A stretch of 64,000 nt of DNA, taken from Erodium maritimum. Lineage: Eukaryota; Streptophyta; Magnoliopsida; Geraniales; Geraniaceae. Positions 3,001-52,315 of the stretch are shown here, piece by piece. The notes below the pieces were generated by a model. That model saw only the letters and a list, made by a program, of their open reading frames with translations. It made no database searches and was not told where the DNA came from. The position numbers and the translations under genes are program-made. Each line of letters opens with the position of its first letter. Positions within the stretch are counted from its first letter, which is position 1. The DNA lies in assembly GCA_963921825.1 (NCBI GenBank), contig OY997591.1, forward strand, positions 39,143,825-39,207,824. Reading direction: 5' to 3'.

Positions 3001-5850
3001 AACCCGCAAGACCGACCGGCAATAAAAATTGGTCGGCCCACCTATAGTGTGTCTCGATCAACCTCAAAACAACGGTCGTCCACCGTTAACTCTCCATGAA
3101 CACTACTCCACATTACCCTTTTCATCCAACCTATCCTCCAAGACTAACCTTCCGACCCTGCTCCGTGACATCCTCCTCTATGAACTCTTTCGCGAATCCA
3201 CTACCACCCACATGCACTAGTCCAACTCTAAAATGGAACAACCTCATCCCAAGTCCCAAGCGTACTTCTAAATTTCAAAGGTGTAAAGGTAGAGAACACG
3301 TTACTAGGTGTAAGATATCAAGACATGTAATTTGTTTTATTAGAATTGAAAGGTCGCCTACTCAAATATTGGTCGGTCTGCTTGGAAAAGTGGCTGACCG
3401 CGCCATAATGTGCCCAAAAAATGTCGACCGACGCGATATCTAGGAAGGCGCTGCTCAAACGTGTCTCGACCAACCCGAATGACCGACCGGCAATAAATAT
3501 TGTTCGACCCACCTCTAGTGTGTCTCGACCTACCTTAAAACAACGGTCGTCCATCGTTAACTCTCCATGAACACTACTCCACATTACCCTTTTCATCCAA
3601 CCTATTCTCCAAGGGGTCCTCCAAGACTAAGCTTTCGACCCTACTGCATAACATCCTTCTCTATGAACTCTTTCGCGAATCCATTACCACGCACATGCTC
3701 TAGGCCAACTCCAAAATAGAACAACCTCATCCCAAGTCCCAAGCGTACTTTTAAATTTCAAAGGTGTAAGGGTAGAGAACACGTTACTAAGTGTAAGATA
3801 TCAAGACAAGTAATTTGTTTTACTGGAATTGAAAGGTCGCCTAATCAAATATTGGTCGGTTTGTTGGGAAAGTGCCGACGGCGCCATAATGTGCCGCATA
3901 AAATGTCGACCAGCGCGAGGTCTAGGACGGCCCAGCTGAAACGTGTCCTGACCAACCCGCAACACCGACCGGCAATAAATATTGGCCGACCCACCTCTAG
4001 TGTGCCTCGACCAACCTCAAATCAACGGTCGGCCACCGTTAACTCTCCATGAACACTACTCCACATTACACTTTTCATCCAACCTATCCTCCAAGGGGTC
4101 CTCCAAGACTAACCTTCCGACCCTGCTCCGTGACATCCTCCTCTATGAACTTTTTCGCGAATCCATTACCACCCACATGCACTAGTCCAGCTCCAAAATG
4201 GAACAACCTCATCCCAAGTCCCAAGTGTACTTCTAAATTTCAAAGGTGTAAAGGTAGAGAACACGTTACTAGGTGTAAGTTATCAAGACATGTAATCTGT
4301 TTTATTGGAATTGAAAGGTCGCCTAGTCAAATATTGGTCGCTTTGCTGGGAAAGTGGCCGACCGCGCCATAATGTGCCCAAAAAATGTCGACCGATGTGA
4401 TATCTAGGAAGGCCCTGCTCAAACGTGTCTCGACCAACCCGCAAGACCGACCGGCAATAAATATTGGCCGACCCACCTCTAGTGTGTCTCGGCCAACCTC
4501 AAAACAACGGTCGTCCACCGTTAACTCTCGATGAACACTACTCCACATTAACATTTTTATCCAACATATCCTCCAAGGGGACCTCCAAGATTAACCTTCC
4601 GACCCTATTGCATAACATCCTCCTCTATGAACTCTTTCGCGAATCCACTACATCCCACATGCACTAGTCCAACTCCAAAATGGAACTACCTCATCCCAAG
4701 TCCCAAGCGTACTTCTAAATTTCAAAGGTGTAAGGGTAGAGAACACGTTACTAGGTGTAAGATATCAAGACAAGTAATTTGTTTTATTCGAATTGAAAGG
4801 ATGCCTAGTCAAATATTGGTCGGTGTGCTGGGAAAGTGGCCGACCGCGCAATAGTGTACCGCAAAAAATGTCGACCGACGCGAGGTCTAGGACGGCCGTG
4901 CTTAAATGTGTCTCGACCAACCCGCAAGACCGACCGACAATAATAATTGGCCACCTCTAGTGTGTCTCGACCAACCTCAAAACAACGGTCGTCCACCGTT
5001 AACTCTACATGAACACTACTCCACATTACCCTTTTCATCCAACCTATCATCCAAGGGATCTTCCAAGACTAACCTTCCGACCATGCTCCATGACATCCTC
5101 CTCTATGAACTCTTTTGCGAATCCACTACCACCCACATGCACTAGTCCAACTCCAAAATGCAACAACCTCATCACAAGTCCCAAGCGTACTTCTAAATTT
5201 CAAAGGCGTAAAGGTAAAGAACACGTTACTAGGTTTAAGATATCAGGACATGTAATTTGTTTTATTAGAATTGAAACGTCGCGTACTCAAATATTGGTCG
5301 GTCTGGTGGGAAAGTGGCCGACCGCGCCATAATGTGCCCAAAAAATGTCGACCGACGCGATATCTAGGAAGGGCATGCTCAAACGTGTCTCGACCAGCCC
5401 GCATGACCGACCGGCAATAAATATTTTCCGACCCACCTCTAGTGTGTCTCGACCAACCTCAAAACAACGGTCGTCCACCGTTAATTCTCCATGAACACTA
5501 CTCCATATTACCCTTTTTTCAAACCTATCCTACAAGTGGTCCTCCAAAACTATCCTTTCGAACCTACTACATAACATCTTCCTCTATGAACTAGGTGTAA
5601 GATATCAAGACAAGTAATTTGGTTTATTAGAATTGAAAGGTCGCTAAGTCAAATATTGGTTGGTCTGCTGGGAAAGTGGCTGACCGCGCCATAATGTGCC
5701 GCAAAAAATGTCGACCGACGCGAGGTCTAGGACGTCCCAGCTCAATCGTGTCTCGACCAACCCGCAAGACCGACCGGCAATAAATATTTGTCGGCCCACC
5801 TCTAGTGTGTCTCGACCAACCTCAAAACAACGGTCGTCCACCGTTAATTC
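1..5850 (+). repeat. Satellite array block S1, ~483-bp monomers (divergent)
   Basis: About twelve head-to-tail copies of a ~483-bp monomer. Landmarks recur at this spacing: the ATGAACACTACTCC string at 271, 754, 1649, 2131, 3096, 4049 and 5009. Each monomer has a GC-rich half full of GGTCGG/CGACC motifs and a C-rich, G-poor half. Copies differ visibly from one another, more than in the blocks further right. Some are irregular: about 70 bp missing near 1430, 12 bp missing near 3140 between two CCTCCAAG repeats, and about 120 bp missing near 5590. Monomers near 1445-2118 resemble those near 4805-5478, a spacing of 3360 bp or seven monomers, hinting at an older higher-order period. Open frames on both strands repeat with the monomer and are not genes. 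Confidence 0.95.
5846..5850. other. Target-site duplication, left of copia element 1
   Basis: AATTC directly before the TGTTGG start of the 5' LTR. It matches the AATTC at 15225-15229. It lies in the satellite string ACCGTTAATTCTCC. Confidence 0.93.
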
Positions 5851-6492
5851 TGTTGGTTTTTGTGCCCTAGGCCAATCGTGATTATGGACGGAATTATCAT
5901 TTCATTAATACATCGGCACTACTATTATCATTTGTTAAATGTTAATAGTGTGAATAATACTCTTTCATAAGATCATCGGGTTGAGGACCTGATAGTAAAA
6001 CTTTTAGAAGTAATAGAGTATTATTCAGTTGATCCCTGGTCTTACTGATATACTAAGACTAGTATGATGTTTGCTGATAGATCACGTTTTACTGATCATA
6101 CATATTGGATATGAAGTCAAATCATAGATGTCATTTAGGAAAATGACATTGGATGACCCACTGTGAGAATACTACATAGGAACTGTCATGAGTATTTCTC
6201 AATACCGTAATATGACTTAAGTCCTCTGACCTTATAGTCATCATGATTTCTACATAGGTAGCTGTGTGCTTTGACACAGTTATACGTTATCTTTAAACGA
6301 GCAATTATAAAGGTTGTGATTGGGTGCATAAGTGTCTATGTAAGAGATATGGTTGAGTGATAAGGGATCTGTCACTCATAGAATTATGAGAGATATCGTT
6401 TGGGCCCCTTGATAAGTGAGACTACAGAAAAAGCATGGCCATGCGAATTGATAGAGTTATCACTAGCAGTGTACTTAAGATCACGAAACAGC

Positions 6493-6535
6493 GATCGAAT
6501 AAAATAAGGATGACGGCCCTATGCCTTATTCGATC
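6493..6535 (+). other. Conserved LTR stem-loop (element 1, 5' LTR)
   Basis: Outer stem GATCGA/TCGATC, a five-base bulge, inner stem ATAAGG/CCTTAT and loop ATGACGGCCCTATG. The same plan is present in the 3' LTR (13202-13244) and in the other copia family, where the outer stem reads GATTGAG/CTCAATC. That is a compensating change of one base pair. Confidence 0.75.
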
Positions 6536-7091
6536 GAGATATCGTTGACATAAGGGTTAGGATATTAGCGGTTAAAGGTTAAGTCGGATTAACGATCATC
6601 ATAAACGTTTAGGTAGTCATAATGCCTTGCTAGAGGCCAACTATGACATGTGGGCGAAACGAGGATTTCGGGCCCAGTGCCAACACGTGTTATGAGCCTA
6701 CAGGGTCGCACACAACAACGAGCCCAAAATCGAATTGGACTTTTGAAGTCCCTCAAGTGAATAAAATAATATATTATGTATGATATAATATTTATTTATT
6801 CATTAACTCGTTTTTCGAATTACCAATATAATAAAGATTATGTTGGGCAATTAAAATGCAAAAATGACTCTTGAATTTTTGAAATTCAAAGAGGGTATTT
6901 TTGCATGAGCACTACTCCTAAAATGAGACAGTTGTCATAAAAGAAAGTCCAAGAGTTGGACTTGCTTGAAATGACTTAGTGGAGTCATGTTTAGGAATAG
7001 TAAGCATGCAAAACCTAAGTGAGACACTTGTCCAAGTTGGAAGTCCAAGTGTTTGGTTTTTCCAAATAAAACAAATGTGGTCATGTTGGGT

Positions 7092-7099
7092 TATATAAG
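7092..7099 (+). promoter_or_regulatory. Putative TATA box of the 5' LTR
   Basis: TATATAAG about 590 bp before the LTR end. It is the only strong TATA-like string in a suitable position, and a purine-rich AGAGAG stretch follows it. Transcription would be expected to start some 25-35 bp downstream; that is inferred from the usual spacing and not visible directly. Confidence 0.6.
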
Positions 7100-7687
7100 C
7101 ATGCAAGAGAGAGAAGCAAAATCAGAATTTTCATTGTGTTTAGAATAGTTCTCAAAGGGTAGAGAGAGAAACGAGTTAGAAAGAAAGAGAGGAAGAAGTG
7201 TTCTTCGTTTGTGCTAGCACACAAGTGATTTCGGATATCTTGTTGGTGTGGATACCGGTAGAGGACGGATCCTTTTGGAAACGTCTCAACTCACACTTAA
7301 TCCACCAAATCCATTTGTTTCGGTGTTGTTTGTTTGCAAGAAGAGAAGAAAAATCTGCCCAGATTTTTCTGCCCAGAATCTGTCCGACCAGCCACTGTAA
7401 AGTGCCCGATCGGAGGTTCATCTGAGGTCCGATCGTTCTGATTTTTGGTGTGAACGTTCTACACATATTGGACTTCAATATGACTGGAGGTATTTGGATT
7501 CCAACGGTTTGTTGCTGAGATATACGAGCTGCAAGTTGGTCCCTGTCTCGAACCAAGCTGAAAATTGAAAGAGGTAATCTCTCCTTTAATTATTATTTGT
7601 CGGTTTACTCGGAATTACATGGATCGCGAGGCTATTCTAGGGAAAGTTTTTAATTTCCGCTGCTTTTGCTCCCTAGAATTCAAACAG

Positions 7688-7700
7688 TGGTATCAGAGCC
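7688..7700 (+). other. Primer-binding site (initiator Met-tRNA type), element 1
   Basis: TGGTATCAGAGCC lies one base after the 5' LTR. This is the classic plant copia primer site, complementary to the 3' end of initiator methionine tRNA. Confidence 0.93.
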
Positions 7701-7976
7701 TCTTGTAATTCATTTAAACCGACCATGCATGCATGGTTATTGTATGAGCTTTCGTGTTTAAGAGGTTTTTGTTGTTCCATGTTGATGCATGATTGATTGT
7801 AGGCCGAATTTGCATGATTTAGGCATGTTGGATAATAGGATTATATAACATGTGTTATAGTTATGAACTATGATTATGCAAATTAGTTTTCTAATGGGGT
7901 GCACGGTTATGAACCGTCAAAATAATATATTGTGAATGTATAATTGATTTCATAATGTGATTATGGAATATTGATG

Positions 7977-8080
7977 GTGCTAGTAGCACGCATGCATGAG
8001 TACTAGTAGCATATTTTGCAAGTGCTAGTAGCATGCATGCATAAGTGCTAGTATCATCCTAGTTCAAGTGATGATAGCAT
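7977..8080 (+). repeat. Degenerate short tandem repeat in the element 1 leader
   Basis: Three to four imperfect units of about 33 bp built on GTGCTAGTAGCA followed by GCATGCAT, itself a palindrome. It lies inside the leader upstream of gag. Function unknown. Confidence 0.7.
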
Positions 8081-8890
8081 CCTTTTGGGGGCACTAATAC
8101 TTTGTAATACTATGTTATGAACATATTGTTTAATTCACAATATGATTGTGATTTGTTAATCAAATTGTGGCCATTCGAGTTGTTTTAAAACAATTTCGAA
8201 TATCATAAAATCCAATGGTTGGATTAATTCCAATAAGGTTTTTCTTTGGCAATTCAAATGCCTTAGTGAAAAATTATCCGAACCCCTTCACCCCGTTAGA
8301 GGCGCTACAATTATCATTGGGTAAATTGTTTACTCGAAAGTGTGTTAATTTGTTTCTTATGATATGTTAATATTATATGCGTATTGCTTGATGCATGGTG
8401 CATAGCATAGCTCATCCCGACCAATTTGCTTACTTTAATTTTATTTGGGTTTGTAATTTAAATACGGCCTGCGTGTTGTTATTTTTATTGTAATAAGTTC
8501 TTTGTAACAAGAGAAGCCCAAGACGGTGTTTTTCAAGAGAAGCAATTTTTGAAGGAAGGTCAAAAAGGAAATTTGGAGGTTGAACTCAAAGATGGAGGTT
8601 CAAGATGAAGAGTTCTCTTGAAGGCTTGTTTTTGTTTCACCACTAGGATTGACTTTTGGTCTTCATATGGGCTTATGAAGACCAACTTTGTAATGGGCTA
8701 TGCTTTGACACGTTTACTTTTATGCTTATGCATGGTATTGCATGACTTATTTATTGTTAAAGTGCTTAGACCGTTTGTATATGATACAACGGACCTTTTG
8801 TATATGATACAATAAGGAAAAATCAACCCTAAACTAAATATTAAGTCGGTGAGATGCCTTCCATATTGGTCCACCTATCGAACCTTAGAC

Positions 8891-9155
8891 CTATGTGTAG
8901 GTTATGCCAAAGCGTGGTGCACATAGTCCTCTAAGCTAGATGAGATGGATTAAGCACTTATCCAACCTTAGAACGTTGTGTGTAGGTTATGCCAAAGCGT
9001 GGTGCTCACAATTGTCTAACGTTAGATGGATCAAACCTTAAATTACTATGTGTAGGTTATGCCAAAGCGTGGTGCACATAGTCGTTTAAGTTTGATGGCA
9101 TGGAGTGAAATTTTTGTTGCTATGTGTAGGTTATGCCAAAGCGTGGTGCGCATAG
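8891..9155 (+). repeat. Four-copy hairpin repeat in the element 1 leader
   Basis: Four 36-base units at 8891-8926, 8976-9011, 9046-9081 and 9120-9155 share the core GGTTATGCCAAAGCGTGGTG. The unit ends pair: CTATGTG with CACATAG in copies 1 and 3, TTGTGTG with CTCACAA in copy 2, and CTATGTG with CGCATAG in copy 4. Copy 2 changes both sides of the stem, and copy 4 keeps pairing through a G-U. The spacers between units are unrelated in sequence. Confidence 0.85.
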
Positions 9156-9463
9156 TAGTCAAGGTTTCATATCCGGATATGATTGAACTTTTCTAGGTTT
9201 TACAAAAAGGTTTTGGACCTAGGGCATCAGATAGAATTTGTGCCAACACATATGATGTGTTTATTCTATCCAAGAGTTGCATATTGATGCAATTGGTAAA
9301 GAGTTACCTACCTAATTAATTCTACATGGGGCGATTAAGCCAACGCTTACTCTAAGTGGAATTCAATATGGATCTTGGCTTTTAATGTATCCTGAAGATA
9401 CAACAAAGGGTTGATTGTTTTATATCTGTATTAATGACTTTGCATATATATCTGTTGTAGATC

Positions 9464-9905
9464 ATGTCTTCAAACAATTCACATAATTTATCGATACGAT
9501 CGATCCTTGAGAAGGATAAGCTCAATGGGACAAATTTTCTAGATTGGGCCAGAAACCTGAGAATTGTTCTCATGCAGGAAAGAAAAGAGTATATCTTGGA
9601 TGAGCCAGTTCTTGAGGAACCAACCTCAAATGCTTCGAAATCCATTAGAGATGGTTGGACCAGACATTTTGATGACTCTATTGATGTCACTTGTATAATG
9701 CTTGGTTCCATGGAGGCTGATCTCAAGAAGCAAAATGATGGATGAGGATGTGTATGACATGATGGTTCAACTCAAGTAAATGTTCCAAGAGAAGGCCAAG
9801 ATTGAAAGGTTCAATACTGTCAAGAACCTCATGTCATATAAGATGCCTATTGGGAAGAGGAACTGCAAGAATTATAAAGATGATCCAAAGAAGAACAAGG
9901 GTAGT
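9464..9905 (+). pseudogene. gag region of copia element 1
   Basis: Starts at an ATG and encodes a typical plant copia Gag N-terminus, including LDGTN-like KLNGTNFLDWARNLRIVL. This is the region that in the family builds the virus-like particle around the RNA. Downstream, the string KRNCKNYKDDPKK matches the sequence around the copia Gag zinc knuckle. The region is broken and is scored as a fossil. Confidence 0.85.
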
Positions 9906-9919
9906 GTACCCAGCTCTTC

Positions 9920-10172
9920 AGGTATTCATGTTATAGAGCTCAATGCATTTACTTTTGGTTCTTGGATATTGGATATTGGATCCGAATCACACATTTGTAT
10001 AAATGTGCAAGGACTCAAAAGTAGGAGAGCATTGAAGGAAGGCATGGTGGACCTACGAGTTGGGGATGACCATGGAGTCATTGCCTTAGTTGTGGGGACA
10101 TACGAATTAGACTTGCCTAGTGGGCTTGTTTTTCATTTTGAACGATGTTATCATGTACCTACGTTTTTGTAG
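9920..10172 (+). pseudogene. Protease region of copia element 1
   Basis: Encodes SWILDIGSESHICINVQGLK, which aligns with the aspartic-protease active-site region of plant copia polyproteins (family form SWILDTG..SHIC). After it come a GDDHGVIALVVGTYELDLPSG stretch in two parts and a CYHVP string, as usual at the end of this domain. In intact relatives it cleaves the Gag-Pol precursor. Fossil. Confidence 0.8.
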
Positions 10173-10379
10173 GAGTACCGTCTCCATTTCGTGTTTGGAC
10201 AAAGAAGGCTATAAGTTTGCTATTGAGAATAGTAAGTTTAGTCTTTCTCATGATAACGTTCATCATCCAAATGCTTCTTGAGTTAGAGGTCTTTAAGTTT
10301 TGAACATAGAAGACTCTAATGAGAAGTCCCTCTATAACATTGATACAAGAGGGTTTAAGTCTGATGAGACAAACCCTAT

Positions 10380-11110
10380 ATTCCTCTAGCACTGTCGCTT
10401 GATTCATGTAAATAAGAAACGCATATCAAAACTCCAATTTCAAGGACTTTTGGATTCTTTTATGAAACATTTGAAACGTGCAAATCTTATTTAATGGACA
10501 AGATGACAAAGACACCTTTTTTCTGAAACGGTGAGAGAGCTAGTGGCTTATTGGGGATTATACATTCGGATGTATGTGGTCCAATAAGTACAACTGCTAG
10601 AGGAGGATTTGGGTACTTCATAAAAAATCGAAAGTTTTGTAGGGTTCAAAATTTTCAAGAATGAAGTACAAAATCAACTTGGTCAAAATATTAAGGCACT
10701 ACGATATGATCGAAGTCGTGAATATTTGAGCCAAGAGTTCGTAGATCATCTGAAAGATTGTGAGATTATTTCTCAACTAACTTCCCCGGGAACACCACAT
10801 TGGAATGGTGTGTATGAACGGAGGAATCGAACCTTATAGGATATGGTTCGGTCTATGATGAGTAACATTGATCTCCCAATCTCGTTTTGGAGATATGCTC
10901 TGGAAACTACTACATTCGTCTTGAACAGAGTACCACCAAAGGCAGTAGATAAGACACTGTATGAGATATGGACAGGAAAGGTTCCTGATTTGTCTTTTCT
11001 AAATATAAGGGGATGTATAACTTATGTGAAGCGTCTAAGGACGAATAAGTTAGCCCCAAATCAGAGAAGTTCCTCTTTGTAGGATATCCTAAGGAAACTA
11101 AAGGATATTA
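10380..11110 (+). pseudogene. Integrase region of copia element 1
   Basis: Contains the copia integrase landmarks: IIHSDVCGPI near 10560, RYDRSREYLSQEFVDHLK near 10700, SPGTPHWNGVYERRNRTL near 10790, then NIDLPISFWRYALETTTFVLN and the NKLAP-type C-terminal part. In the family this protein inserts the DNA copy into the host chromosome. It is broken. Confidence 0.85.
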
Positions 11111-11424
11111 CTTCTACAACGCTAAGGAGAACAAAATGTTTGTTGCTCGGGGTGGAGTATTTTGGAAAGAGAGTTTATTTCCAAAGGAAACAGTGGGAGG
11201 GCTTTTGAACTTAAAGAAGTTACAGACCCACAAGTAGTGTTGTGCCTAAAATGGTTACTCAAGTACATGAACAAGAAAATGTAGTACATGAGGTTGTACC
11301 ACAAGTACAAAGGAGGTCTGATAGGACACGTCAAGCCCCTATCAGATATGGGTTTCTCACTTCAGAGATTAATGACGTGATAGCTGCGGATCAAGTTGAA
11401 TTCACATCCTCTCAAGAGACCATT

Positions 11425-12040
11425 GACTAGCTGCAGAGATCCATTCATGGATTAAAGCAGGCTTGTCAAAGTTGGAATCTTTGTTTTGATGAATAAGTCA
11501 AAGGGTTTGACTTCATCAAGAACAAAGATGGGCCTTGTGTGTACAAGAAGGTTAGTGGGAGCGCGATCGTATTCTTAGTGCTGTATGTAGATGACATACT
11601 GGTCATTGAAAATGACATCCCTATCTTGAAAGATGTTAAGGCGTGGTTAGGGCAATGTTTTTCAATGAAGGACCTAGGCGAAGCTGCCTATGTATTAGGT
11701 AGCAAAATCTATGGAGATAGATCTAGAAAGCTTATGGGCCTAAGTCAGAGCACTTACATTGACAAGGTGTTGTCAAGGTTTAGTATGCAGGACTCTAAAA
11801 GAGGGTTTTTGTCAATGTCTCATGGCATTAGTCTCAGCAAGACTCACTGTCTTATGACACTTGATGAGCGAGACCGCATAAGTAAAATCCCATATGCGTC
11901 TGATACTGGATTTATCATATATGCGATGTTGTGTACTAAACTCAATATCTCGTATGCATTAAGTGCAACGAGTAGATACCAGGTAGGTCCATGTGAAGGT
12001 CACTGGACGACAGTTAAAGGATCCTTAAGTACTTGAGAAG
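11425..12040 (+). pseudogene. Reverse transcriptase region of copia element 1
   Basis: Carries the IHGLKQACQSWN motif, the catalytic FLVLYVDDILVI motif near 11580, and the downstream GLSQSTYIDKVLSRFSMQDS and SYALSATSRYQ landmarks of plant copia RT. In working elements this enzyme copies element RNA to DNA. Fossil. Confidence 0.88.
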
Positions 12041-12540
12041 GACTAAGGATGCCTTTATGCTGTATGGCGGTCAGAAAAGTGAATTAGCTGTAAAGAGTTA
12101 CATAGATGCTAGCTTCCAGACCGACATAGATGATTTGAAATCATAGTCTGGTTATGTGTTTTTGTTTGAATGAAGGTGGGTTCAGCTTAAGAAGCTCGGA
12201 GCTGAACACTGTTGCTGCAAAAAAAGACGAGTAGTTAGCTGCATCGGATGCATCTAAATAAAGTGTTTGGATCCGGCTTGGGAATTATCCATAGTATATC
12301 AGATCCGATAAACATGTATTGTGATAAATGTGGCGCGATAGCATAAGACAAGGAGCCTAGATTTCACCAGAAATCCAAACACATCCTAAGTCGTTAACAT
12401 CTCATTCAATGAGAGGAAACGCTAAGATATGCAAAGTATCTACAAATGATAATGTGGCTGATCCTATAACCAAGGCGCTTCCACACCTTGGACATGAGTG
12501 TCATGTCAGGACAATGTGCATTACTTGTAATGTTGACTGG
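12041..12540 (+). pseudogene. RNase H region of copia element 1
   Basis: Remnants of the copia RNase H domain: YIDASFQTDIDD, then SGYVFLF, then a degraded tail ending near the polypurine tract. In the family this domain removes the RNA template strand. Heavily decayed. Confidence 0.7.
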
Positions 12541-12548
12541 ACCTAATG

Positions 12549-12558
12549 CAAGTGGGAG
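12549..12558 (+). other. Polypurine tract of element 1
   Basis: CAAGTGGGAG immediately before the TGTTG start of the 3' LTR. This is the expected second-strand primer and is shared with elements 2 and 3. Confidence 0.85.
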
Positions 12559-13201
12559 TGTTGATTTTTGTGCCCTAGGCCAATCGTGATTATGGACGGC
12601 ATTATCATTTCATTAGTACATCGACACTACTATTATCATTTGTGAAATGTTAATAGTGTGAATAATACTCTTTCTTAAGATCATCGGGTTGAGGACCTGA
12701 TAGTAAAACTCTTAGAAGTAATAGAGTATTATTCACTTGATCCCTGGTCTTACTGATATACTAAGACTAGTATGATGTTGGCTGATGATCACGTTTTACT
12801 GATCATACATATTGGATATGAAGTCAAATCATAGATGTCATTTAGGGAAATGACATTGGATGACCCACTGTGGGAATACTACATAGGAACTGTCATGAGT
12901 ATTTCTCAGTATCGTAATATGACTGAAGTCCTCTGACCTTATAGTCATCATGATTTCTACATAGGTAGTTGTGTGCTTTGACACAGTTAAACGTTGTCTT
13001 TAACCGGGAAATTATAAAGGCTGTGATTGGGTGCATAAGTGTCTATGTGAGAGATATGGTTGACTGATAAGGGATCTGTCACTCATAGAATTATGAGAGA
13101 TATCGTTTGGCCCCCTTGATATGTGAGACTGCAGAAAAAGAATGGCCATGAGAATTGATAAAGAGTTATCACTAGCAGTCTACTTAAGATCAAGAAACAG
13201 C

Positions 13202-13244
13202 GATCGAATAAAATAAGGATGACGGTCCTATGCCTTATTCGATC
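13202..13244 (+). other. Conserved LTR stem-loop (element 1, 3' LTR)
   Basis: Same two-part stem and ATGACGG..CTATG loop as at 6493-6535. The single loop difference leaves the stem intact. Confidence 0.72.
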
Positions 13245-13800
13245 GAGATATCGTTGACAGAAGGGTTATCATATTAGCGGTTAAAGGTTAAGTCGGATTA
13301 ACGATCATCATAAACGTTTGGGTAGTCATAATGCCTTGCTAGAGGCCAACTATGACATGTGGACGAAACGAGGATTTTGGGCCCACTGCCAACATGTGTT
13401 ATGAGCCTACAGGGTCGCACGCAACAACGAGCCCAAAATCGAATCGGACTTTTGAAGTCCCTCAAGTGAATAAAATAATATATTATATATGATATAATAT
13501 TTATTTATTCATTAACTCGTTTTTCGAATTACCAATATAATAAAGATTATGTTGGGCAATTAAAATGCAAAAATGACTCTTGAATTTTTGAAATTCAAAG
13601 AGGGTATTTTTGCATGAGCACTACTCCTAAAATGAGACACTTGTCATAAAAGAAAGTCCAAGAGTTGGACTTGCTTGAAATGACTTAGTGGAGTCATGTT
13701 TAGGAATAGTAAGCTTGCAAAACTTAAGTGAGACACTTGTCCAAGTTGGAAGTCCAAGTGTTGGGTTTTTCCAAATAAAATAAGTGTGGTCATGTTAGGT

Positions 13801-13808
13801 TATATAAG
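13801..13808 (+). promoter_or_regulatory. TATA box, first copy in the 3' LTR
   Basis: TATATAAG at the position homologous to 7092-7099, in the first duplicate of the 3' LTR. Confidence 0.55.
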
Positions 13809-14629
13809 CATGCAAGAGAGAGAAGCAAAATCAGATTTTTCATTGTGTTGAGAGTGGTTCACAAAGGGTAGAGAGAGAAACGAGTTAGAGATAAAGAGAG
13901 GAAGAAGTGTTCTTCCTTTGTGGTAGCACACATGCGATTTGCGATATCTTGTTGGTGTGGATACCGGTAGAGGAAGGATCCTTTTGGAAACGTCTCAACT
14001 CACACTTAATCCACCAAATCCATTTGTTTCGGTGTTGTTTGTTTGCAAGAAGAGAAGAAAAATCTGCCTAGATTTTTCTGCCCAGAATCTGTACGACCAG
14101 CCACTGTAAAGTGCCCGATCGGTGGTTCATCCGAGGTCCGATCTTGCTGATTTTTGGTGTAAACGTTCTACACATATTGGACTACAGTATGACCGCAGGG
14201 AGCCCAAAATTGAACACAACAACATGTGTTATGAGCCTACAGGGTCGCACACAACAACGAGCCCAAAATCGAATCGGACTTTTGAAGTCCCTCAAGTGAA
14301 TAAAATAATATATTATATATGATATAATATTTATTTATTCATTAACTCGTTTTTCGAATTACCAATATAATAAATATTATGTTGGGCAATTAAAATGCAA
14401 AAATGACTCTTGAATTTTTGAAATTCAAAGAGGGTATTTTTGCATGAGCACTACTCCTAAAATGAGACACTTGTCATAAAAGAAAGTCTAAGATTTGGAC
14501 TTGCTTGAAATGACTTAGTGGAGTCATGTTTAGGAATAGTAAGCTTGCAAAACTTAAGTAAGACACTTGTCCAAGTTGGAAGTCCAAGTGTTGGTTTTTC
14601 CAAATAAAATAAGTGTGGTCATGTTAGGT

Positions 14630-14637
14630 TATATAAG
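14630..14637 (+). promoter_or_regulatory. TATA box, second copy in the 3' LTR
   Basis: TATATAAG repeated by the 830-bp duplication. This LTR therefore has two candidate core promoters pointing right into the satellite. Confidence 0.55.
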
Positions 14638-15224
14638 CATGCAAGGGAGAGAAGCAAAATCAGATTTTTCATTGTGTTGAGAGTGGTTCACAAAGTGTAG
14701 AGAGAGAAACGAGTTAGAGAGAAAGAGAGGAAGAAGTGTTCTTCCTTTGTGGTAGCACACATGCGATTTGCGATATCTTGTTGGTGTGGATACCGGTAGA
14801 GGAAGGATACTTTTGGAAACGTCTCAACTCACACTTAATCCACCAAATCCATTTGTTTCGGTGTTGTTTGTTTGCAAGAAGAGAAGAAAAATCTGCCCAG
14901 ATTTTTCTGCCCAGAATCTGTACGACCAGCCACTGTAAAGTGCCCGATCGGTGGTTCATCCGAGGTCCGATCTTGCTGATTTTTGGTGTGAACGTTCTAC
15001 ACATATTGGACTTCAGTATGACCGCAGGGATTTGGATTCCAACGGTTTGTTGCTGACATATACGACCTGCAAGTTGGTCCCTGTCTCGAACCAAGCTGAA
15101 AATTGAAAGAGGTAATCTCTCCTTTAATTATTATTCGTCGGTTTACTCAGAATTACATTGATCCTGAGGCTATTCTAGAGAAAGTTTTTAATTTCCGCTT
15201 CTTTTTCTCCCTCGAATTCCAACA

Positions 15225-15229
15225 AATTC
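15225..15229. other. Target-site duplication, right of copia element 1
   Basis: AATTC directly after the AACA end of the 3' LTR, matching 5846-5850. Satellite sequence resumes at once (TCATGAACACTACTCC). Confidence 0.93.
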
Positions 15230-22310: not shown

Positions 22311-22399
22311 CATAATGTGCCGCAAAAAATGTCGACCGACGCTTGGCCTTGGATGGCCCAGCTCAATCGTGTCTCGACCAACGCCCAAGACCGACCGAC

Positions 22400-26700: not shown

Positions 26701-27470
26701 ACCATTAACTCTCCACATTACCCTTTTCTTCCAACCTATCCTCCAAGAGGTCCTCCAAAACTAACCTTCTGACCCTGCTCCATGACATCCTCCTCTATGA
26801 ACTCTTTCGCGAATCCACTACAACCCACATGCACTAGTCCAACTCCAAAATGGAACTACCTCATCCCAAGTCCCAAGCGTACTTCTAAATTTCAAAGGTG
26901 TAAGGGAAGAGAACACGTTACTAGGTGTAAGATATCAAGACAAGTAATTTGTTTTATTAGAACTGAAACGTCGCCTAGTCAAATATTGGTCGGTCTGCTG
27001 GGAAAGTGGCCGACAGCGCCATAATGTGCCGCAAAGAATGTCGACCGACGCGAGGTCTAGGACGGCCCAACTCAAACGTGTCTCGACCAACACGCTAACC
27101 GACCTGCAATAAATGTCGTCCACCGTTAATTCTCCATGAACACTACTCCACATTACCCTTTTCAACCAACCTATCCTCCAAGGGGTCCTACAATACTAAC
27201 CTTCTGACCCTATCCATAACATCCTCCTCTATGAACTCTTTCGCGAATCCACTACCACCCACATACACTAGTCCAACTCTAAAATGGAACTACCTCATCC
27301 CAAGTCCCAAGCGTACTTCTAAATTTCAAATGTGTAAGTATAGAGAACACGTTACTAGGTGTAGGATATCAAGACAAGTAATTTCTTTTATTAGAAATGA
27401 AAGGTCGCCTAATCAAATATTGGTCGGTCTGCTGGGGAAGTGGCCGACCGCGCCATAATGTGCGCAAAAA
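26700..27470 (+). repeat. Irregular satellite monomers between blocks
   Basis: Monomers with short losses near 26712 (between two CTCCA strings) and near 27115 (about 60 bp), joining block S4 to the regular 481-bp block. No other content seen. Confidence 0.8.
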
Positions 27471-30300
27471 ATGTCGACGGATGCGAGGTCTAGGACGGCC
27501 CTGCTCAAACGTGTCTCGACCAACCAGCTAGACCGACCGGCAATAAATATTGGCCGGGCCACCTCTAGTGTGTCTCGACCAACGTCAAAACAACGGTCGT
27601 CCACCGTTAATTCTCAATGAACACTACTCCACATTACCATTTTCAACCAACCTATCCTCCAAGGGGTCCTACAATACTAACCTTCCGACCCTATCCATAA
27701 CATCCTGCTCTATGAACTCTTTCGCGAATCCACTACCACCCACATGCACTAGTCCAACTCCAAAATGGAACTACCTCATCCCAAGTCCCAACCGTACTTC
27801 TAAATTTCAAAGGTGTAAGTGTAGAGAACACGTTAGTAGGTGTAAGATATCAAGACAAGTAATTTCTTTTATTAGAAATGAAAGGTCGCCTAATAAAATA
27901 TTGGTCGGTCTGCTGGGAAAGTGGCCGACCGCGCCATAATGTGCGCAAAAAATGTCGACGGATGCGAGGTCTAGGACGGCCCTGCTCAAACGTGTCTCGA
28001 CCAACCAGCTAGACCGACCGGCAATAAATATTGGCCGGGTCACCTCTAGTGTGTCTCGACCAACGTCAAAACAACGGTCGTCCACCGTTAATTCTCAATG
28101 AACACTACTCCACATTACCATTTTCAACCAACCTATCCTCCAAGGGGTCCTACAATACTAACCTTCCGACCCTATCCATAACATCCTGCTCTATGAACTC
28201 TTTCGCGAATCCACTACCACCCACATGCACTAGTCCAACTCCAAAATGGAACTACCTCATCCCAAGTCCCAACCGTACTTCTAAATTTCAAAGGTGTAAG
28301 TGTAGAGAACACGTTACTAGGTGTAAGATATCAAGACAAGTAATTTCTTTTATTAGAAATGAAAGGTCGCCTAATAAAATATTGGTCGGTCTGCTGGGAA
28401 AGTTGCCGACCGCGGCATAATGTGCGCAAAAAATGTCGACGGACGCGAGGTCTAGGACGGCCCTGCTCAAACGTGTCTCGACCAACCAGCTAGACCGACC
28501 GGCAATAAATATTGGCCGGGCTACCTGTAGTGTGTCACGACCAACGTCAAAACAACGGTCGTCCACCGTTAATTCTCAATGAACACTACTCCACATTACC
28601 ATTTTCAACTAACCTATCCTCCAAGGGGTCCTACAATACTAAACTTCCGACCCTATCCATAACATCCTCCTCTATGAACTCTTTCGCGAATCCACTACCA
28701 CCCACATACACTAGTCCAACTCCAAAATGGAACTACCTCATCCCAAGTCCCAAGCGTACTTCTAAATTTCATAGGTGTAAGTGTAGAGAATACGTTACTA
28801 GGTGTAAGATATCAAGACAAGTAATTTCTTTTATTAGAAATGAAAGGTCGCCTAATAAAATATTGGACGGTCTGCTGGGAAAGTGGCCGACCGCGCCATA
28901 ATGTGCGCAAAAAATGTCGACGGATGCGAGGTCTAGGACGGCCCTGCTCAAACGTGTCTCGACCAACCAGCTAGACCGACCGGCAATAAATATTGGCCGG
29001 GTCACCTCTAGTGTGTCTCGACCAACGTCAAAACAACGGTCGTCCACCGTTAATTCTCAATGAACACTACTCCACATTACCATTTTCAACCAACCTATCC
29101 TCCAAGGGGTCCTACAATACTAACCTTCCGACCCTATCCATAACATCCTGCTCTATGAACTCTTTCGCGAATCCACTACCACCCACATGCACTAGTCCAA
29201 CTCCAAAATGGAACTACCTCATCCCAAGTCCCAACCGTACTTCTAAATTTCAAAGGTGTAAGTGTAGAGAACACGTTACTAGGTGTAAGATATCAAGACA
29301 AGTAATTTCTTTTATTAGAAATGAAAGGTCGCCTAATAAAATATTGGTCGGTCTGCTGGGAAAGTTGCCGACCGCGGCATAATGTGCGCAAAAAATGTCG
29401 ACGGACGCGAGGTCTAGGACGGCCCTGCTCAAACGTGTCTCGACCAACCAGCTAGACCGACCGGCAATAAATATTGGCCGGGCCACCTGTAGTGTGTCAC
29501 GACCAACGTCAAAACAACGGTCGTCCACCGTTAATTCTCAATGAACACTACTCCACATTACCATTTTCAACCAACCTATCCTCCAAGGGGTCCTACAATA
29601 CTAACCTTCCGACCCTATCCATAACATCCTGCTCTATGAACTCTTTCGCGAATCCACTACCACCCACATGCACTAGTCCAACTCCAAAATGGAACTACCT
29701 CATCCCAAGTCCCAACCGTACTTCTAAATTTCAAAGGTGTAAGTGTAGAGAACACGTTACTAGGTGTAAGATATCAAGACAAGTAATTTCTTTTATTAGA
29801 AATGAAAGGTCGCCTAATAAAATATTGGTCGGTCTGCTGGGAAAGTGGCCGACCGCGCCATAATGTGCGCAAAAAATGTCGACGGATGCGAGGTCTAGGA
29901 CGGCCCTGCTCAAACGTGTCTCGACCAACCAGCTAGACCGACCGGCAATAAATATTGGCCGGGCCACCTCTAGTGTGTCTCGACCAACGTCAAAACAACG
30001 GTCGTCCACCGTTAATTCTCAATGAACAGTACTCCACATTACCAGTTTCAACCAACCTATCCTCCAAGGGGTCTTACAATACAAACCTTCCGACCCTATC
30101 CATAACAGGCTCTATGAACTCTTTCGCGAATCCACTACCACCCACATACACTAGTCCAACTCCAAAATGGAACTACCTCATCCCAAGTCCCAAGCGTACT
30201 TCTAAATTTCAAAGGTGTAAGTGTAGAGAACACGTTACTAGGTGTAAGATATCAAGACAAGTAATTTCTTTTATTAGAAATGAAAGGTCGCCTAATCAAA
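27470..30300 (+). repeat. Satellite block S5: regular 481-bp monomers with a 962-bp dimer
   Basis: Six monomers at exact 481-bp spacing (landmarks at 27550, 28031, 28512, 28993, 29474, 29955). The pair at 28031-28992 is repeated at 28993-29954, distinguished by the alternating marks GGCCGGGTCACCTC and CACGACCAACG. All share a GTGCGCAAAAAATG variant. Confidence 0.9.
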
Positions 30301-39300: not shown

Positions 39301-42300
39301 CTATGAACTCTTTCGCGAATCCACTACCACCCACATGCACTAGTCGAACTCCAAAATGGAACAACCTCATCGCAAGTCCCAAGCGTACTTCTAAATTTTA
39401 AATGTGTGAGGGTATGGAACACGTTACTAGGTGTGTAAGATATCAACACAAGTAATTTGTTTTATTAGAAATGAAAGGTCGCCTAATTAAATATTGGTCG
39501 GTCTGCTGGGACAGTGGTCGACTGGGCCATAATGTGCCGCAAAAAAATGTCGACCGACGCGAGGTCTATGATGGCCCTGCTCAAACGTGTCTCGACCAAC
39601 CCGCAAGAGCGACCAAAAATAAATATTGGCCGGCCCACCTCTAGTATGTCTCGACCAACCTCAAAAAAACGGTCGTCCACCGTTAATTCTCCATGAACAC
39701 TACTCCACGTTACCCTTTTCATCGAACCTGTCCTCCAAGGGGTCCTCCAAGACTAACCTTCCGACCCTACTCCATAACATCCTCCTCTATGAACTCTTTC
39801 GCTAATCCACTACCACCCACATGCACTAGTCCAACTCCAAAATGGAACTACCTCATCCCAAGTCCCAAACGTACTTCTAAATTTCAAAGGTGTAAGTGTA
39901 GAGAACACGTTACTAGGTGTAAGATATCAAGACAAGTAATTTCTTTTATTAGAAATGAAAGGTCGCCTAATCAAATATTGGTCGGTCTGCTGGGAAAGTG
40001 GCCGACCACGCCATAATGTGCCACAAAACATGTCGACCGACGCGAGGTCTAGGACGCCCCAGCTCAAACGTGTCTCGACCAACCCGCTAGACCGGCCGGC
40101 AATAAATATTGGCCGGGCCACCTCTAGTGTGTCTCGACCAACCTCAAAACAACGGTCGTCCACCGTTAATTTTCCATGAAAACTACTCCACATTACCCTT
40201 TTCAACCAACCTATCCTCCAAAGGGTCCTCCAATACTAACCTTGTGACCCTATCCATAACATCCTCCTCTATGAACTCTTTCGCGAATCCACTACCACCC
40301 ACATGCACTAGTCCAACTCCAAAATGGAACTACCTCATCCCAAGTCCCAAGCGTACTTCTAAATTTCAAAGTTGTAAGTGTAGAGAACACGTTACTAGGT
40401 GTACGATATCAAGACAAGTAATTTCTTTTATTAGAAATGAAAGGTCGCCTAATCAAATATTGGTCGGTCTGTTGGTAAAGTGGCCGATCGCGCCATAATG
40501 TGCCGCAAAAAATGTCGAGCGACGCGAAGTCTAAGACGGCCCACCTCAAACGTGTCTCGACCAACCCGCTAGACCGAACGATAATAAATATTGGCCGGCC
40601 CACCTCTTGTGTGTATCGACCAACATCAAAGCAACGGTCGTCCACCGTTAAGTCTCCATGAGTACTACTCCATATTACCCTTTTCACCCAACCTATCCTC
40701 CAAGTGGTCCTTTAAAACTAAACTTCCGACCCTGCTCCATGACATCCTCCTCTATGAACTCTTTCGCGAATCCACTACCACCCACATGCACTAGTCGAAC
40801 TCCAAAATGGAACAACCTCATCGCAAGTCCCAAGCGTACTTCTAAATTTTAAATGTGTGAGGGTATGGAACACGTTACTAGGTGTGTAAGATATCAACAC
40901 AAGTAATTTGTTTTATTAGAAATGAAAGGTCGCCTAATTAAATATTGGTCGGTCTGCTGGGACAGTGGTCGACTGGGCCATAATGTGCCGCAAAAAAATG
41001 TCGACCGACGCGAGGTCTATGATGGCCCTGCTCAAACGTGTCTCGACCAACCCGCAAGAGCGACCAAAAATAAATATTGGCCGGCCCACCTCTAGTATGT
41101 CTCGACCAACCTCAAAAAAACGGTCGTCCACCGTTAATTCTCCATGAACACTACTCCACGTTACCCTTTTCATCGAACCTGTCCTCCAAGGGGTCCTCCA
41201 AGACTAACCTTCCGACCCTACTCCATAACATCCTCCTCTATGAACTCTTTCGCTAATCCACTACCACCCACATGCACTAGTCCAACTCCAAAATGGAACT
41301 ACCTCATCCCAAGTCCCAAACGTACTTCTAAATTTCAAAGGTGTAAGTGTAGAGAACACGTTACTAGGTGTAAGATATCAAGACAAGTAATTTCTTTTAT
41401 TAGAAATGAAAGGTCGCCTAATCAAATATTGGTCGGTCTGCTGGGAAAGTGGCCGACCACGCCATAATGTGCCACAAAACATGTCGACCGACGCGAGGTC
41501 TAGGACGCCCCAGCTCAAACGTGTCTCGACCAACCCGCTAGACCGGCCGGCAATAAATATTGGCCGGGCCACCTCTAGTGTGTCTCGACCAACCTCAAAA
41601 CAACGGTCGTCCACCGTTAATTTTCCATGAAAACTACTCCACATTACCCTTTTCAACCAACCTATCCTCCAAAGGGTCCTCCAATACTAACCTTGTGACC
41701 CTATCCATAACATCCTCCTCTATGAACTCTTTCGCGAATCCACTACCACCCACATGCACTAGTCCAACTCCAAAATGGAACTACCTCATCCCAAGTCCCA
41801 AGCGTACTTCTAAATTTCAAAGTTGTAAGTGTAGAGAACACGTTACTAGGTGTAAGATATCAAGACAAGTAATTTCTTTTATTAGAAATGAAAGGTCGCC
41901 TAATCAAATATTGGTCGGTCTGTTGGGAAAGTGGCCGATCGCGCCATAATGTGCCGCAAAAAATGTCGAGCGACGCGAAGTCTAAGACGGCCCACCTCAA
42001 ACGTGTCTCGACCAACCCGCTAGACCGAACGATAATAAATATTGGCCGGCCCACCTCTTGTGTGTATCGACCAACATCAAAGCAACGGTCGTGCACCGTT
42101 AAGTCTCCATGAGTACTACTCCATATTACCCTTTTCACCCAACCTATCCTCCAAGTGGTCCTTTAAAACTAAACTTCCGACCCTGCTCCATGACATCCTC
42201 CTCTATGAACTCTTTCGCGAATCCACTACCACCCACATGCACTAGTCGAACTCCAAAATGGAACAACCTCATCGCAAGTCCCAAGCGTACTTCTAAATTT

Positions 42301-45300
42301 TAAATGTGTAAGGGTATGGAACACGTTACTAGGTGTGTAAGATATCAACACAAGTAATTTGTTTTATTAGAAATGAAAGGTCGCCTAATTAAATATTGGT
42401 CGGTCTGCTGGGACAGTGGTCGACTGGGCCATAATGTGCCGCAAAAAAATGTCGACCGACGCGAGGTCTATGATGGCCCTGCTCAAACGTGTCTCGACCA
42501 ACCCGCAAGAGCGACCAAAAATAAATATTGGCCGGCCCACCTCTAGTATGTCTCGACCAACCTCAAAACAACGGTCGTCCACCGTTAATTCTCCATGAAC
42601 ACTACTCCACGTTACCCTTTTCATCGAACCTGTCCTCCAAGGGGTCCTCCAAGACTAACCTTCCGACCCTACTCCATAACATCCTCCTCTATGAACTCTT
42701 TCGCTAATCCACTACCACCCACATGCACTAGTCCAACTCCAAAATGGAACTACCTCATCCCAAGTCCCAAACGTACTTCTAAATTTCAAAGGTGTAAGTG
42801 TAGAGAACACGTTACTAGGTGTAAGATATCAAGACAAGTAATTTCTTTTATTAGAAATGAAAGGTCGCCTAATCAAATATTGGTCGGTCTGCTGGGAAAG
42901 TGGCCGACCACGCCATAATGTGCCACAAAACATGTCGACCGACGCGAGGTCTAGGACGCCCCAGCTCAAACGTGTCTCGACCAACCCGCTAGACCGGCCG
43001 GCAATAAATATTGGCCGGGCCACCTCTAGTGTGTCTCGACCAACCTCAAAACAACGGTCGTCCACCGTTAATTTTCCATGAAAACTACTCCACATTACCC
43101 TTTTCAACCAACCTATCCTCCAAAGGGTCCTCCAATACTAACCTTGTGACCCTATCCATAACATCCTCCTCTATGAACTCTTTCGCGAATCCACTACCAC
43201 CCACATGCACTAGTCCAACTCCAAAATGGAACTACCTCATCCCAAGTCCCAAGCGTACTTCTAAATTTCAAAGTTGTAAGTGTAGAGAACACGTTACTAG
43301 GTGTAAGATATCAAGACAAGTAATTTCTTTTATTAGAAATGAAAGGTCGCCTAATCAAATATTGGTCGGTCTGTTGGGAAAGTGGCCGATCGCGCCATAA
43401 TGTGCCGCAAAAAATGTCGAGCGACGCGAAGTCTAAGACGGCCCACCTCAAACGTGTCTCGACCAACCCGCTAGACCGAACGATAATAAATATTGGCCGG
43501 CCCACCTCTTGTGTGTATCGACCAACATCAAAGCAACGGTCGTGCACCGTTAAGTCTCCATGAGTACTACTCCATATTACCCTTTTCACCCAACCTATCC
43601 TCCAAGTGGTCCTTTAAAACTAAACTTCCGACCCTGCTCCATGACATCCTCCTCTATGAACTCTTTCGCGAATCCACTACCACCCACATGCACTAGTCGA
43701 ACTCCAAAATGGAACAACCTCATCGCAAGTCCCAAGCGTACTTCTAAATTTTAAATGTGTAAGGGTATGGAACACGTTACTAGGTGTGTAAGATATCAAC
43801 ACAAGTAATTTGTTTTATTAGAAATGAAAGGTCGCCTAATTAAATATTGGTCGGTCTGCTGGGACAGTGGTCGACTGGGCCATAATGTGCCGCAAAAAAA
43901 TGTCGACCGACGCGAGGTCTATGATGGCCCTGCTCAAACGTGTCTCGACCAACCCGCAAGAGCGACCAAAAATAAATATTGGCCGGCCCACCTCTAGTAT
44001 GTCTCGACCAACCTCAAAACAACGGTCGTCCACCGTTAATTCTCCATGAACACTACTCCACGTTACCCTTTTCATCGAACCTGTCCTCCAAGGGGTCCTC
44101 CAAGACTAACCTTCCGACCCTACTCCATAACATCCTCCTCTATGAACTCTTTCGCTAATCCACTACCACCCACATGCACTAGTCCAACTCCAAAATGGAA
44201 CTACCTCATCCCAAGTCCCAAACGTACTTCTAAATTTCAAAGGTGTAAGTGTAGAGAACACGTTACTAGGTGTAAGATATCAAGACAAGTAATTTCTTTT
44301 ATTAGAAATGAAAGGTCGTCTAATCAAATATTGGTCGGTCTGCTGGGAAAGTGGCCGACCACGCCATAATGTGCCACAAAACATGTCGACCGACGCGAGG
44401 TCTAGGACGCCCCAGCTCAAACGTGTCTCGACCAACCCGCTAGACCGGCCGGCAATAAATATTGGCCGGGCCACCTCTAGTGTGTCTCGACCAACCTCAA
44501 AACAACGGTCGTCCACCGTTAATTTTCCATGAAAACTACTCCACATTACCCTTTTCAACCAACCTATCCTCCAAAGGGTCCTCCAATACTAACCTTGTGA
44601 CCCTATCCATAACATCCTCCTCTATGAACTCTTTCGCGAATCCACTACCACCCACATGCACTAGTCCAACTCCAAAATGGAACTACCTCATCCCAAGTCC
44701 CAAGCGTACTTCTAAATTTCAAAGTTGTAAGTGTAGAGAACACGTTACTAGGTGTAAGATATCAAGACAAGTAATTTCTTTTATTAGAAATGAAAGGTCG
44801 CCTAATCAAATATTGGTCGGTCTGTTGGGAAAGTGGCCGATCGCGCCATAATGTGCCGCAAAAAATGTCGAGCGACGCGAAGTCTAAGACGGCCCACCTC
44901 AAACGTGTCTCGACCAACCCGCTAGACCGAACGATAATAAATATTGGCCGGCCCACCTCTTGTGTGTATCGACCAACATCAAAGCAACGGTCGTCCACCG
45001 TTAAGTCTCCATGAGTACTACTCCATATTACCCTTTTCACCCAACCTATCCTCCAAGTGGTCCTTTAAAACTAAACTTCCGACCCTGCTCCATGACATCC
45101 TCCTCTATGAACTCTTTCGCGAATCCACTACCACCCACATGCACTAGTCGAACTCCAAAATGGAACAACCTCATCGCAAGTCCCAAGCGTACTTCTAAAT
45201 TTTAAATGTGTAAGGGTATGGAACACGTTACTAGGTGTGTAAGATATCAACACAAGTAATTTGTTTTATTAGAAATGAAAGGTCGCCTAATTAAATATTG

Positions 45301-45430
45301 GTCGGTCTGCTGGGACAGTGGTCGACTGGGCCATAATGTGCCGCAAAAAAATGTCGACCGACGCGAGGTCTATGATGGCCCTGCTCAAACGTGTCTCGAC
45401 CAACCCGCAAGAGCGACCAAAAATAAATAT
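30300..45430 (+). repeat. Satellite block S6: trimeric 1451-bp higher-order repeat, about ten copies
   Basis: Three monomer types A, B and C repeat in order. Type A landmarks lie at 30501, 31954, 33405, 34856, 36307, 37757, 39207, 40658, 42109, 43560 and 45011, giving spacings of 1450-1453 bp. Units differ by only a few bases, well over 99% identical by eye. The first unit is A-B-B instead of A-B-C, and the last is cut short after A and part of B. This is the youngest and most homogeneous part of the window. Its period equals three 484-bp monomers. Confidence 0.96.
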
Positions 45431-45975
45431 TGGTCGGCCCACCTCTAGTATGTCTCGACCAACCTCAAAACAACGGTCGTCCACCGTTAATTCTCCATGA
45501 ACACTACTCCACGTTACCCTTTTCATCCAACCTATCCTCGAAGGGGTCCTCCAAGACTAACCTTCCGACCCTACTCCATAACATCCTCCTCTATGAACTC
45601 TTTCGTAATCCATTAACACCCACATGCACTAGTCCAACTCTAAAATGGAACAACCTCATCCCAAGTCTCAAGCGTACTTCTAAATTTCAAAGGTGTAAGT
45701 GTAGAGAACACGTTACTAGGTGTAAGATATCAAGACAAGTAATTTGTTTTATTAGAATTGAAAGGTCGTCTATTCAAATATTGGTCGGTCTGCTGGGAAA
45801 GTGGCCGACCACGCCATAATGTGCCGCAAAACATGTCGACCGACGCGAGGTCTAGGACGGCCCAGCTCAAACGTGTCTCGACCAACCCACAAGACTGATC
45901 GACAATAAATATTGGCATGCCCACCTCTAGTGTGTCTCGACCAACCTCTAAGCAACGGTCGTCCACCATTAATTC
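45431..45975 (+). repeat. Edge satellite monomer left of element 2, with target duplication AATTC
   Basis: A diverged monomer that no longer follows the 1451-bp unit (for example CATCCAACCTATCCTCG replaces the type B form). It ends at AATTC (45971-45975), the left target duplication of element 2, directly preceded by AACGGT..ACCATT. Confidence 0.9.
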
Positions 45976-47713: not shown

Positions 47714-47714
47714 G

Positions 47715-51780: not shown

Positions 51781-51789
51781 ACAGACATC

Positions 51790-52305: not shown

Positions 52306-52315
52306 GAGCTAGGGC

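What the first reader, a model, noticed from the sequence alone, without database searches (positions are those of the whole stretch)
5829..45975. Two different copia families inserted at the identical base of the satellite monomer
Element 1 (5851-15224) and element 2 (45976-54007) have clearly different LTRs, yet both sit in ACCRTT-AATTC-|-TCC.ATGAAC and both duplicate AATTC. For a 483-bp monomer a chance coincidence is roughly one in several hundred. This suggests integration guided by the local DNA sequence or structure, or by phased chromatin on the satellite. Some plant copia elements, such as Tal1 of Arabidopsis lyrata, are known to favour centromeric satellite; choosing a single base within a monomer would be a much sharper preference.
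Basis: partly seen in the sequence, partly recalled or inferred. Interest (0 to 1): 0.8.

Follow-up and report, generated by a model that had tools for sequence, protein, structure and literature searches.

The report
Retrotransposons sharing one satellite insertion site
Two different plant retrotransposons did land at the same base of a repeated DNA unit, but a survey of related insertions in the same genome shows them spread along the unit with a mild, ordinary preference for certain letters, so this coincidence needs no single-base targeting.

Summary
Elements 1 (5851-15224) and 2 (45976-54007) both follow ACCRTTAATTC, both duplicate AATTC, and sit at monomer position 246 of separate host monomers. 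Single-base choice is not supported. I found 21 satellite insertions of these families and a very abundant relative (e4) on C4, C1 and C8; they occupy 18 monomer positions, with three same-position pairs (246, 327, 377). At least 1,174 copies of the target site are uninterrupted; only these two were found occupied. Among 84 flanks outside the satellite, G stands three bases before the duplication in 48 and T in 3. Mirrored models built on such flanks predict the satellite sites and expect 1.0-1.7 same-position pairs; uniform choice expects 0.44. With 210 possible pairs, one coincidence is unremarkable (36% even under uniform choice), though three are rare under uniform choice (1.1%). Against this, the letters now flanking elements 1 and 2 fit the preference poorly, and its mirror half is assumed. 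Best reading: independent insertions, chance plus an ordinary weak integrase preference like that reported for Tos17.

The parts
27845..28327 (+). reference monomer (483 bp) used for numbering
   Evidence: Tandem Repeats Finder rows
5846..5850 (+). target site duplication AATTC, left copy, element 1 (monomer 246-250)
5851..15224 (+). element 1: Ty1/copia-type LTR retrotransposon without a long reading frame; 5' LTR 5851-7686
12559..15224 (+). element 1, 3' side: LTR copy 1-1634 followed by a second partial LTR copy 831-1836 (compound 3' end)
15225..15229 (+). target site duplication AATTC, right copy, element 1
45971..45975 (+). target site duplication AATTC, left copy, element 2 (monomer 246-250)
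45976..54007 (+). element 2: Ty1/copia-type LTR retrotransposon of a related family without a long reading frame; LTR about 1.74 kb
54008..54012 (+). target site duplication AATTC, right copy, element 2
54433..63779 (-). element 3: rearranged copy of the element-2 family; its 5' LTR end meets the satellite at monomer about 103; left end rearranged, its limit approximate

Best explanation
Elements 1 and 2 are two independent, differently aged insertions of related Ty1/copia families. Their integrases cut target DNA with a 5-bp stagger and have only a weak letter preference (G favoured and T avoided three bases before the duplicated pentamer; by assumed symmetry C favoured and A avoided three bases after it). 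Position 246 of the satellite, usually CCGTT-AATTC-TCC, carries that signature on both sides and is one of a few dozen moderately favoured positions. These families have inserted many times into a satellite with over a thousand copies, so some positions are hit twice. Shown: the junctions, independence of the host monomers, spread of sites, the upstream preference and its predictive power. Inferred: that the integrase causes the preference, and that the downstream half mirrors the upstream half.
For: Junctions and duplications. The two host monomers are not each other's closest relatives (14th to 55th among 70-72 other monomers) and LTR divergence differs (K2P 0.045 and 0.097), so neither insertion looks like a copy of the other. 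21 satellite insertions occupy 18 positions; all 8 read on both sides have matching 5-bp duplications. Of 74 non-satellite 5' flanks G stands at -3 in 41 and T in 3, chi-square p = 3e-12, element-1 family 23 of 45 G and element-2 family 18 of 29 G; e4 7 of 10 G. None of 84 duplications is AATTC. Models from these flanks give the 21 satellite sites far more weight than random positions (P 0.00005 or less in 20,000 draws); the four mirrored models expect 1.0-1.7 same-position pairs, P(3 or more) 0.09-0.23. In the satellite, the letter actually read at -3 in element orientation is G 7, C 7, A 1, T 1 of 16 (tallied by hand; G or C 14 of 16, P 0.0008). Only 2 of at least 1,176 copies of the site were found occupied.
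Against: Read on the letters that flank them today, the two hosts fit poorly: element 1 has G at -3 but A at +3 (39th percentile of array bases), element 2 has A and A (7th percentile) in the -3/+3 model; in the longest model they stand at the 24th and 18th. Later mutation or a host variant may explain this but was not shown. The mirrored half is assumed: at +3 in element orientation the satellite insertions show C 6, G 3, A 3, T 1 of 13 (hand tally), and A should be rare. With the one-sided model only 0.55 pairs are expected and P(3 or more) is 0.02; under uniform choice 0.011. Of two mock models built from letters 25 bp away, the longer gave P 0.55 but the single-position one gave P 0.0003 with a much smaller effect, so base composition contributes.
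Confidence: 0.87

Rival explanations
1. Single-base targeting: the integrase or a tethering factor recognises the satellite and chooses position 246.
For: Two different families, same base, same orientation.
Against: 19 of 21 insertions lie elsewhere, including four of the element-2 family; 2 of at least 1,176 site copies found occupied. Patterns for element-2- and e4-type LTRs at the site gave, besides element 2, one row with one mismatch (C7:55466341, not checked for satellite context) in the + orientation and none with 0 or 1 mismatch in the - orientation.
Confidence: 0.03
2. Phased chromatin on the satellite (for example nucleosome-bound DNA) concentrates insertions into windows of the monomer.
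For: Three same-position pairs in 21 (uniform P 0.011); PMC6911290 reports predicted nucleosome occupancy around plant LTR insertions (passages).
Against: Pairs within 10 bp are no more frequent than expected (11 seen; P 0.29 uniform, 0.40-0.56 with the mirrored models). No nucleosome map was available.
Confidence: 0.06
3. One insertion arose from the other by recombination or array duplication, with later replacement of the element.
For: Local duplications are common in this array, and the two LTRs share termini.
Against: Each element has its own intact pair of duplications and its own host monomer; the hosts are not closest relatives; the LTRs differ at K2P 0.74 and have different within-element divergence.
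Confidence: 0.02
4. Pure chance with no sequence preference at all.
For: At least one same-position pair is expected in 36% of simulations with 21 uniform insertions, and the present flanks of elements 1 and 2 do not fit the preference well.
Against: A preference at -3 is clear and predicts the satellite sites as a set; three pairs would be rare under uniform choice (0.011).
Confidence: 0.05

Closest known systems
Tos17 (rice Ty1/copia) target consensus ANGTT-TSD-AACNT
   Same: G three bases before a 5-bp duplication; the usual satellite site reads CCGTT-AATTC. The Tos17 consensus was read as quoted in the discussion of PMC6911290 (passages); the primary Tos17 paper was not seen.
   Different: Different families; here the other letters of the Tos17 motif are weak (at -1 T 29 and at -2 T 29, C 24 of 84) and the downstream half was not measured outside the satellite.
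General flank bias of plant LTR retrotransposons (Jedlicka et al. 2019, PMC6911290)
   Same: [quoted passage not shown] here T at -3 is 3 of 84.
   Different: That study pooled many lineages and found only a slight palindrome effect; here three families of one genome are measured and applied to a satellite.
Tal1 of Arabidopsis lyrata (centrophilic LTR retrotransposon)
   Same: Insertions in satellite arrays.
   Different: Tal1 is reported to integrate into CENH3-occupied regions through its integrase C-terminal region (one passage of a meeting report, PMC12859917). The present families are spread along chromosomes and no CENH3 data exist here.

Membership tests
Ty1/copia LTR retrotransposon | LTRs with TG...CA ends and 5-bp target duplication | tested here: met
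   TGTTRG...CCAACA and AATTC on both sides of both elements
Ty1/copia LTR retrotransposon | RVT_2-type reverse transcriptase downstream of integrase | tested here: met
   Element 1: RVT_2 E 1.1e-13 (11497-12033), weak rve piece upstream (E 0.003, below Pfam's cut-off). Element 2: RVT_2 E 4.4e-6 (below cut-off), SH3_retrovirus E 1.2e-19, weak rve upstream (E 0.003, below cut-off); 9 pieces given (one of element 3), 6 with a hit
Angela/BARE-like lineage | clade membership of the reverse transcriptase | not tested
   Only suggested by recalled features (LTR about 1.8 kb, TGTTRG...CCAACA ends)
Tal1-like centromere-targeting element | insertions concentrated in centromeric satellite | tested here: not met
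   Rows listed for the element-1 and element-2 families (292 and 616 LTR starts in all) lie on many chromosomes. Of 98 flanks fetched for them, 75 were informative 5' flanks and 1 of these lies in the satellite (L129). The flanks were taken from capped lists, not at random
Tal1-like centromere-targeting element | dependence on CENH3 chromatin and integrase C-terminus | not testable with these tools
   no chromatin data
Tos17-like weak palindromic target preference | G at -3 before the duplication | tested here: met
   48 of 84 flanks
Tos17-like weak palindromic target preference | mirror-image C at +3 after the duplication | tested here: inconclusive
   In element orientation C 6, A 3 of 13 satellite insertions (hand tally); ten e4 3' ends were sought outside the satellite and missed

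The most novel reading that the evidence does not exclude
Related copia families share a small set of satellite positions (246, 327, 377 each hit twice by different insertions, two of the pairs across chromosomes) more often than their letter preference predicts, because the satellite presents a reproducible DNA shape or nucleosome arrangement to the integrase.
Probability: 0.07. Interest if true: 0.55.

Novelty: new member of a known kind. Interest (0 to 1): 0.2.

Why it matters
If single-base targeting were real it would be a far sharper preference than any I can recall for a plant retrotransposon. The result instead is a caution: satellites are natural target-site assays with over a thousand near-identical targets, but coincidences must be judged against the number of insertions and the integrase's ordinary letter preference. 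The same approach, run on complete arrays, could separate intrinsic preference from chromatin effects.

Tried and rejected
Rejected: recombination between the two sites; AATTC as the families' preferred pentamer (0 of 84 duplications); a strict satellite-seeking habit; clustering of insertions beyond the preference (no excess of near pairs). Led nowhere: paper searches for studies of insertion points along a satellite monomer (listings only) showed none by title or abstract start; this covers only that open library and those terms. Ten e4 3' ends were aimed at by assumed LTR length and missed.

Errors corrected: in the notes I read insertion u as position 330; one search shows 327, as one search had mapped it; one search used 330. 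In one search the right-hand offsets of rows a, d and e were wrong; only rows e1, e2, b and c and the array frequencies of that call stand, and one search gives the corrected contexts. One search ended with an error after printing its table; the table was used.

Choices: the 21 are the junctions, in the loci fetched, where an LTR terminus of these families meets satellite directly. Dropped: array edges, internal deletions and junctions without such a terminus (L041, L043, L044, L046, L048, L049, L051-L054, L056-L058, L062-L066, L068, L069, L071, L072, L074-L080, the right-hand end of the element in L181, and L185). Insertions i and j may be the two ends of one rearranged element (C4:39119042-39127333) and were counted as two. 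Arrays on C6 and C9, and much of C1 and C8, were not examined for insertions. From the 98 element-1 and element-2 flanks fetched, 23 preceded by the polypurine tract (3' LTR starts) and 1 in satellite were dropped, leaving 74; 10 e4 flanks make 84. L180 was fetched and not used; L179 is satellite insertion u.

Full report
What is there. The window lies in a 763-Mb genome of 40 contigs, at C4:39143825-39207824. It is an array of a 483-bp satellite interrupted by three LTR retrotransposons. Element 1 (5851-15224) and element 2 (45976-54007) are flanked by AATTC on both sides, and both duplications map to monomer positions 246-250. Pfam finds copia-type reverse transcriptase pieces in both and weak integrase pieces upstream; the internal regions hold no long frame (longest stop-to-stop pieces 179 and 116 codons). 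The LTRs begin TGTTRG and end CCAACA and are otherwise strongly diverged. Element 3 (about 54433-63779), of the element-2 family and in minus orientation, meets the satellite at about position 103.

Independence. The host halves of the two elements are 89.6-91.7% identical to each other, ranking 14th to 55th among 70-72 other monomers of the window, so the hosts are not close duplicates. LTR divergence is 0.045 (0.051 for the second 3' copy) inside element 1 and 0.097 inside element 2. The two insertions look like separate events of different age.

How many insertions has the satellite received? I located arrays on C4, C1 and C8 and fetched pieces and edges. Besides the two families there is a third relative, here called e4, with 14,416 LTR starts in the genome at up to 3 mismatches, against 616 for the element-2 family at up to 2 mismatches and 292 for the element-1 family at up to 3; 5' and 3' LTRs are counted apart. 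In all, 21 junctions have an LTR terminus of these families directly against satellite. Duplication starts: 36, 52, 103, 123, 127, 130, 187, 197, 231, 236, 246, 246, 259, 274, 327, 327, 346, 377, 377, 469, 479. Eight were read on both sides and all eight have matching 5-bp duplications; 13 were read on one side only. The same-position pairs are 246 (elements 1 and 2, C4, same orientation), 327 (an element-2-family copy on C4 and an e4 copy on C1, both minus) and 377 (e4 copies on C1 and C8, opposite orientations); the members of the last pair and the C1 member of the 327 pair were read on one side only.

Is it more than chance? With 21 insertions there are 210 pairs. Uniform choice over 483 positions expects 0.44 same-position pairs; at least one occurs in 36% of simulations and three or more in 1.1%.

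The preference. I fetched flanks of 60 element-1-family and 38 element-2-family LTR starts. After dropping 23 that follow the polypurine tract and one in satellite, 74 remain. Three bases before the duplication G occurs in 41 and T in 3 (chi-square p = 3e-12), in both families. Ten e4 flanks give G 7, T 0. Together: A 12, C 21, G 48, T 3 of 84, and no AATTC duplication among 84. This resembles the Tos17 consensus ANGTT-TSD-AACNT as quoted in PMC6911290 (passages) and the depletion of T to the left and A to the right of 5-bp duplications reported there (section 8).

Does it explain the satellite sites? In the satellite stretches sampled (178 monomer pieces), position 246 has G at -3 in 94% and C at +3 in 73% of copies; such double matches make up 4.8% of positions in the 15225-45975 array. 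Models trained only on non-satellite flanks give the 21 satellite sites much higher weight than random positions (P 0.00005 or less); the four mirrored models expect 1.0-1.7 same-position pairs, with three or more in 9-23% of draws, and pairs within 10 bp are not in excess (P 0.40-0.56). Position 246 is weighted 2.1 (one-sided) to 4.5 times the average, not hundreds of times.

Results against. The mirrored downstream half is an assumption; a one-sided model expects only 0.55 pairs and leaves P = 0.02 for three. In element orientation the satellite insertions show C 6, G 3, A 3, T 1 at +3 (13 read; hand tally), where the mirror would make A rare. The present flanks of elements 1 and 2 themselves score low (39th and 7th percentile): element 1 has G at -3 but A at +3, element 2 has A at both. 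Of two mock controls from letters 25 bp away, the longer gave P 0.55, but the single-position one gave P 0.0003 with a small effect, so base composition contributes. A modest extra effect, from DNA shape or chromatin, is therefore not excluded.

Is the site a hotspot? At least 1,174 uninterrupted copies of the target region exist at up to 3 mismatches, on C1, C4, C6, C8 and C9 among the rows listed. The exact junction ACCRTTAAYTC-TGTTRG occurs twice in the genome, both in this window (664 matches at up to 2 mismatches against 579 for the reversed control, only the first places listed, and the one-mismatch rows not followed up). Patterns with a longer LTR start found element 2 and one one-mismatch row (C7:55466341, not checked for satellite context) in the + orientation, and no row with 0 or 1 mismatch in the - orientation; these two patterns fit element-2 and e4 LTRs, not element 1. 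About 0.2% occupancy, in a genome with about 15,000 LTR starts of these families, is not single-base targeting.

Mechanism. Most likely each element was integrated by a copia integrase acting on a 5-bp stagger with a weak letter preference; the satellite, with each position repeated over a thousand times, then records the preference as repeated use of favoured positions. Independence, spread and the upstream preference are shown; the integrase as cause and the mirror half are inferred. Whether this satellite is centromeric was not tested.

Verdict. A correct observation with an ordinary explanation. I rate interest 0.2.

Noticed in passing
C1 of G000 (158.6 Mb), 43.1-43.9 Mb and 98.7-99.3 Mb: C1 is about twice the length of C2-C8 (69-87 Mb) and carries two separate clusters of this satellite, as a fused chromosome with a relict second centromere might. 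Inference only.
   Followed up: no
window 30247-45238: Higher-order repeat: groups of three monomers (about 1,451 bp) recur about ten times, seen as a repeating identity pattern to the reference monomer.
   Followed up: no
window 18843-27548: Irregular stretch with shortened monomers and an extra copy of the block around 250-354 (96-bp and 412-434-bp periods).
   Followed up: no
window 12559-15224: Element 1 has a compound 3' end: one LTR copy followed by a second partial copy; the two copies differ by 0.015, less than they differ from the 5' LTR (0.045-0.051), so the duplication is probably later than the insertion.
   Followed up: partly
window 54433-63779: Element 3 is a rearranged element-2-family copy with inverted LTR pieces at its left end and no matching duplication seen.
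   Followed up: partly
G000 genome-wide: The e4 family has 14,416 LTR starts at up to 3 mismatches, and several solo LTRs of it sit in the satellite.
   Followed up: partly
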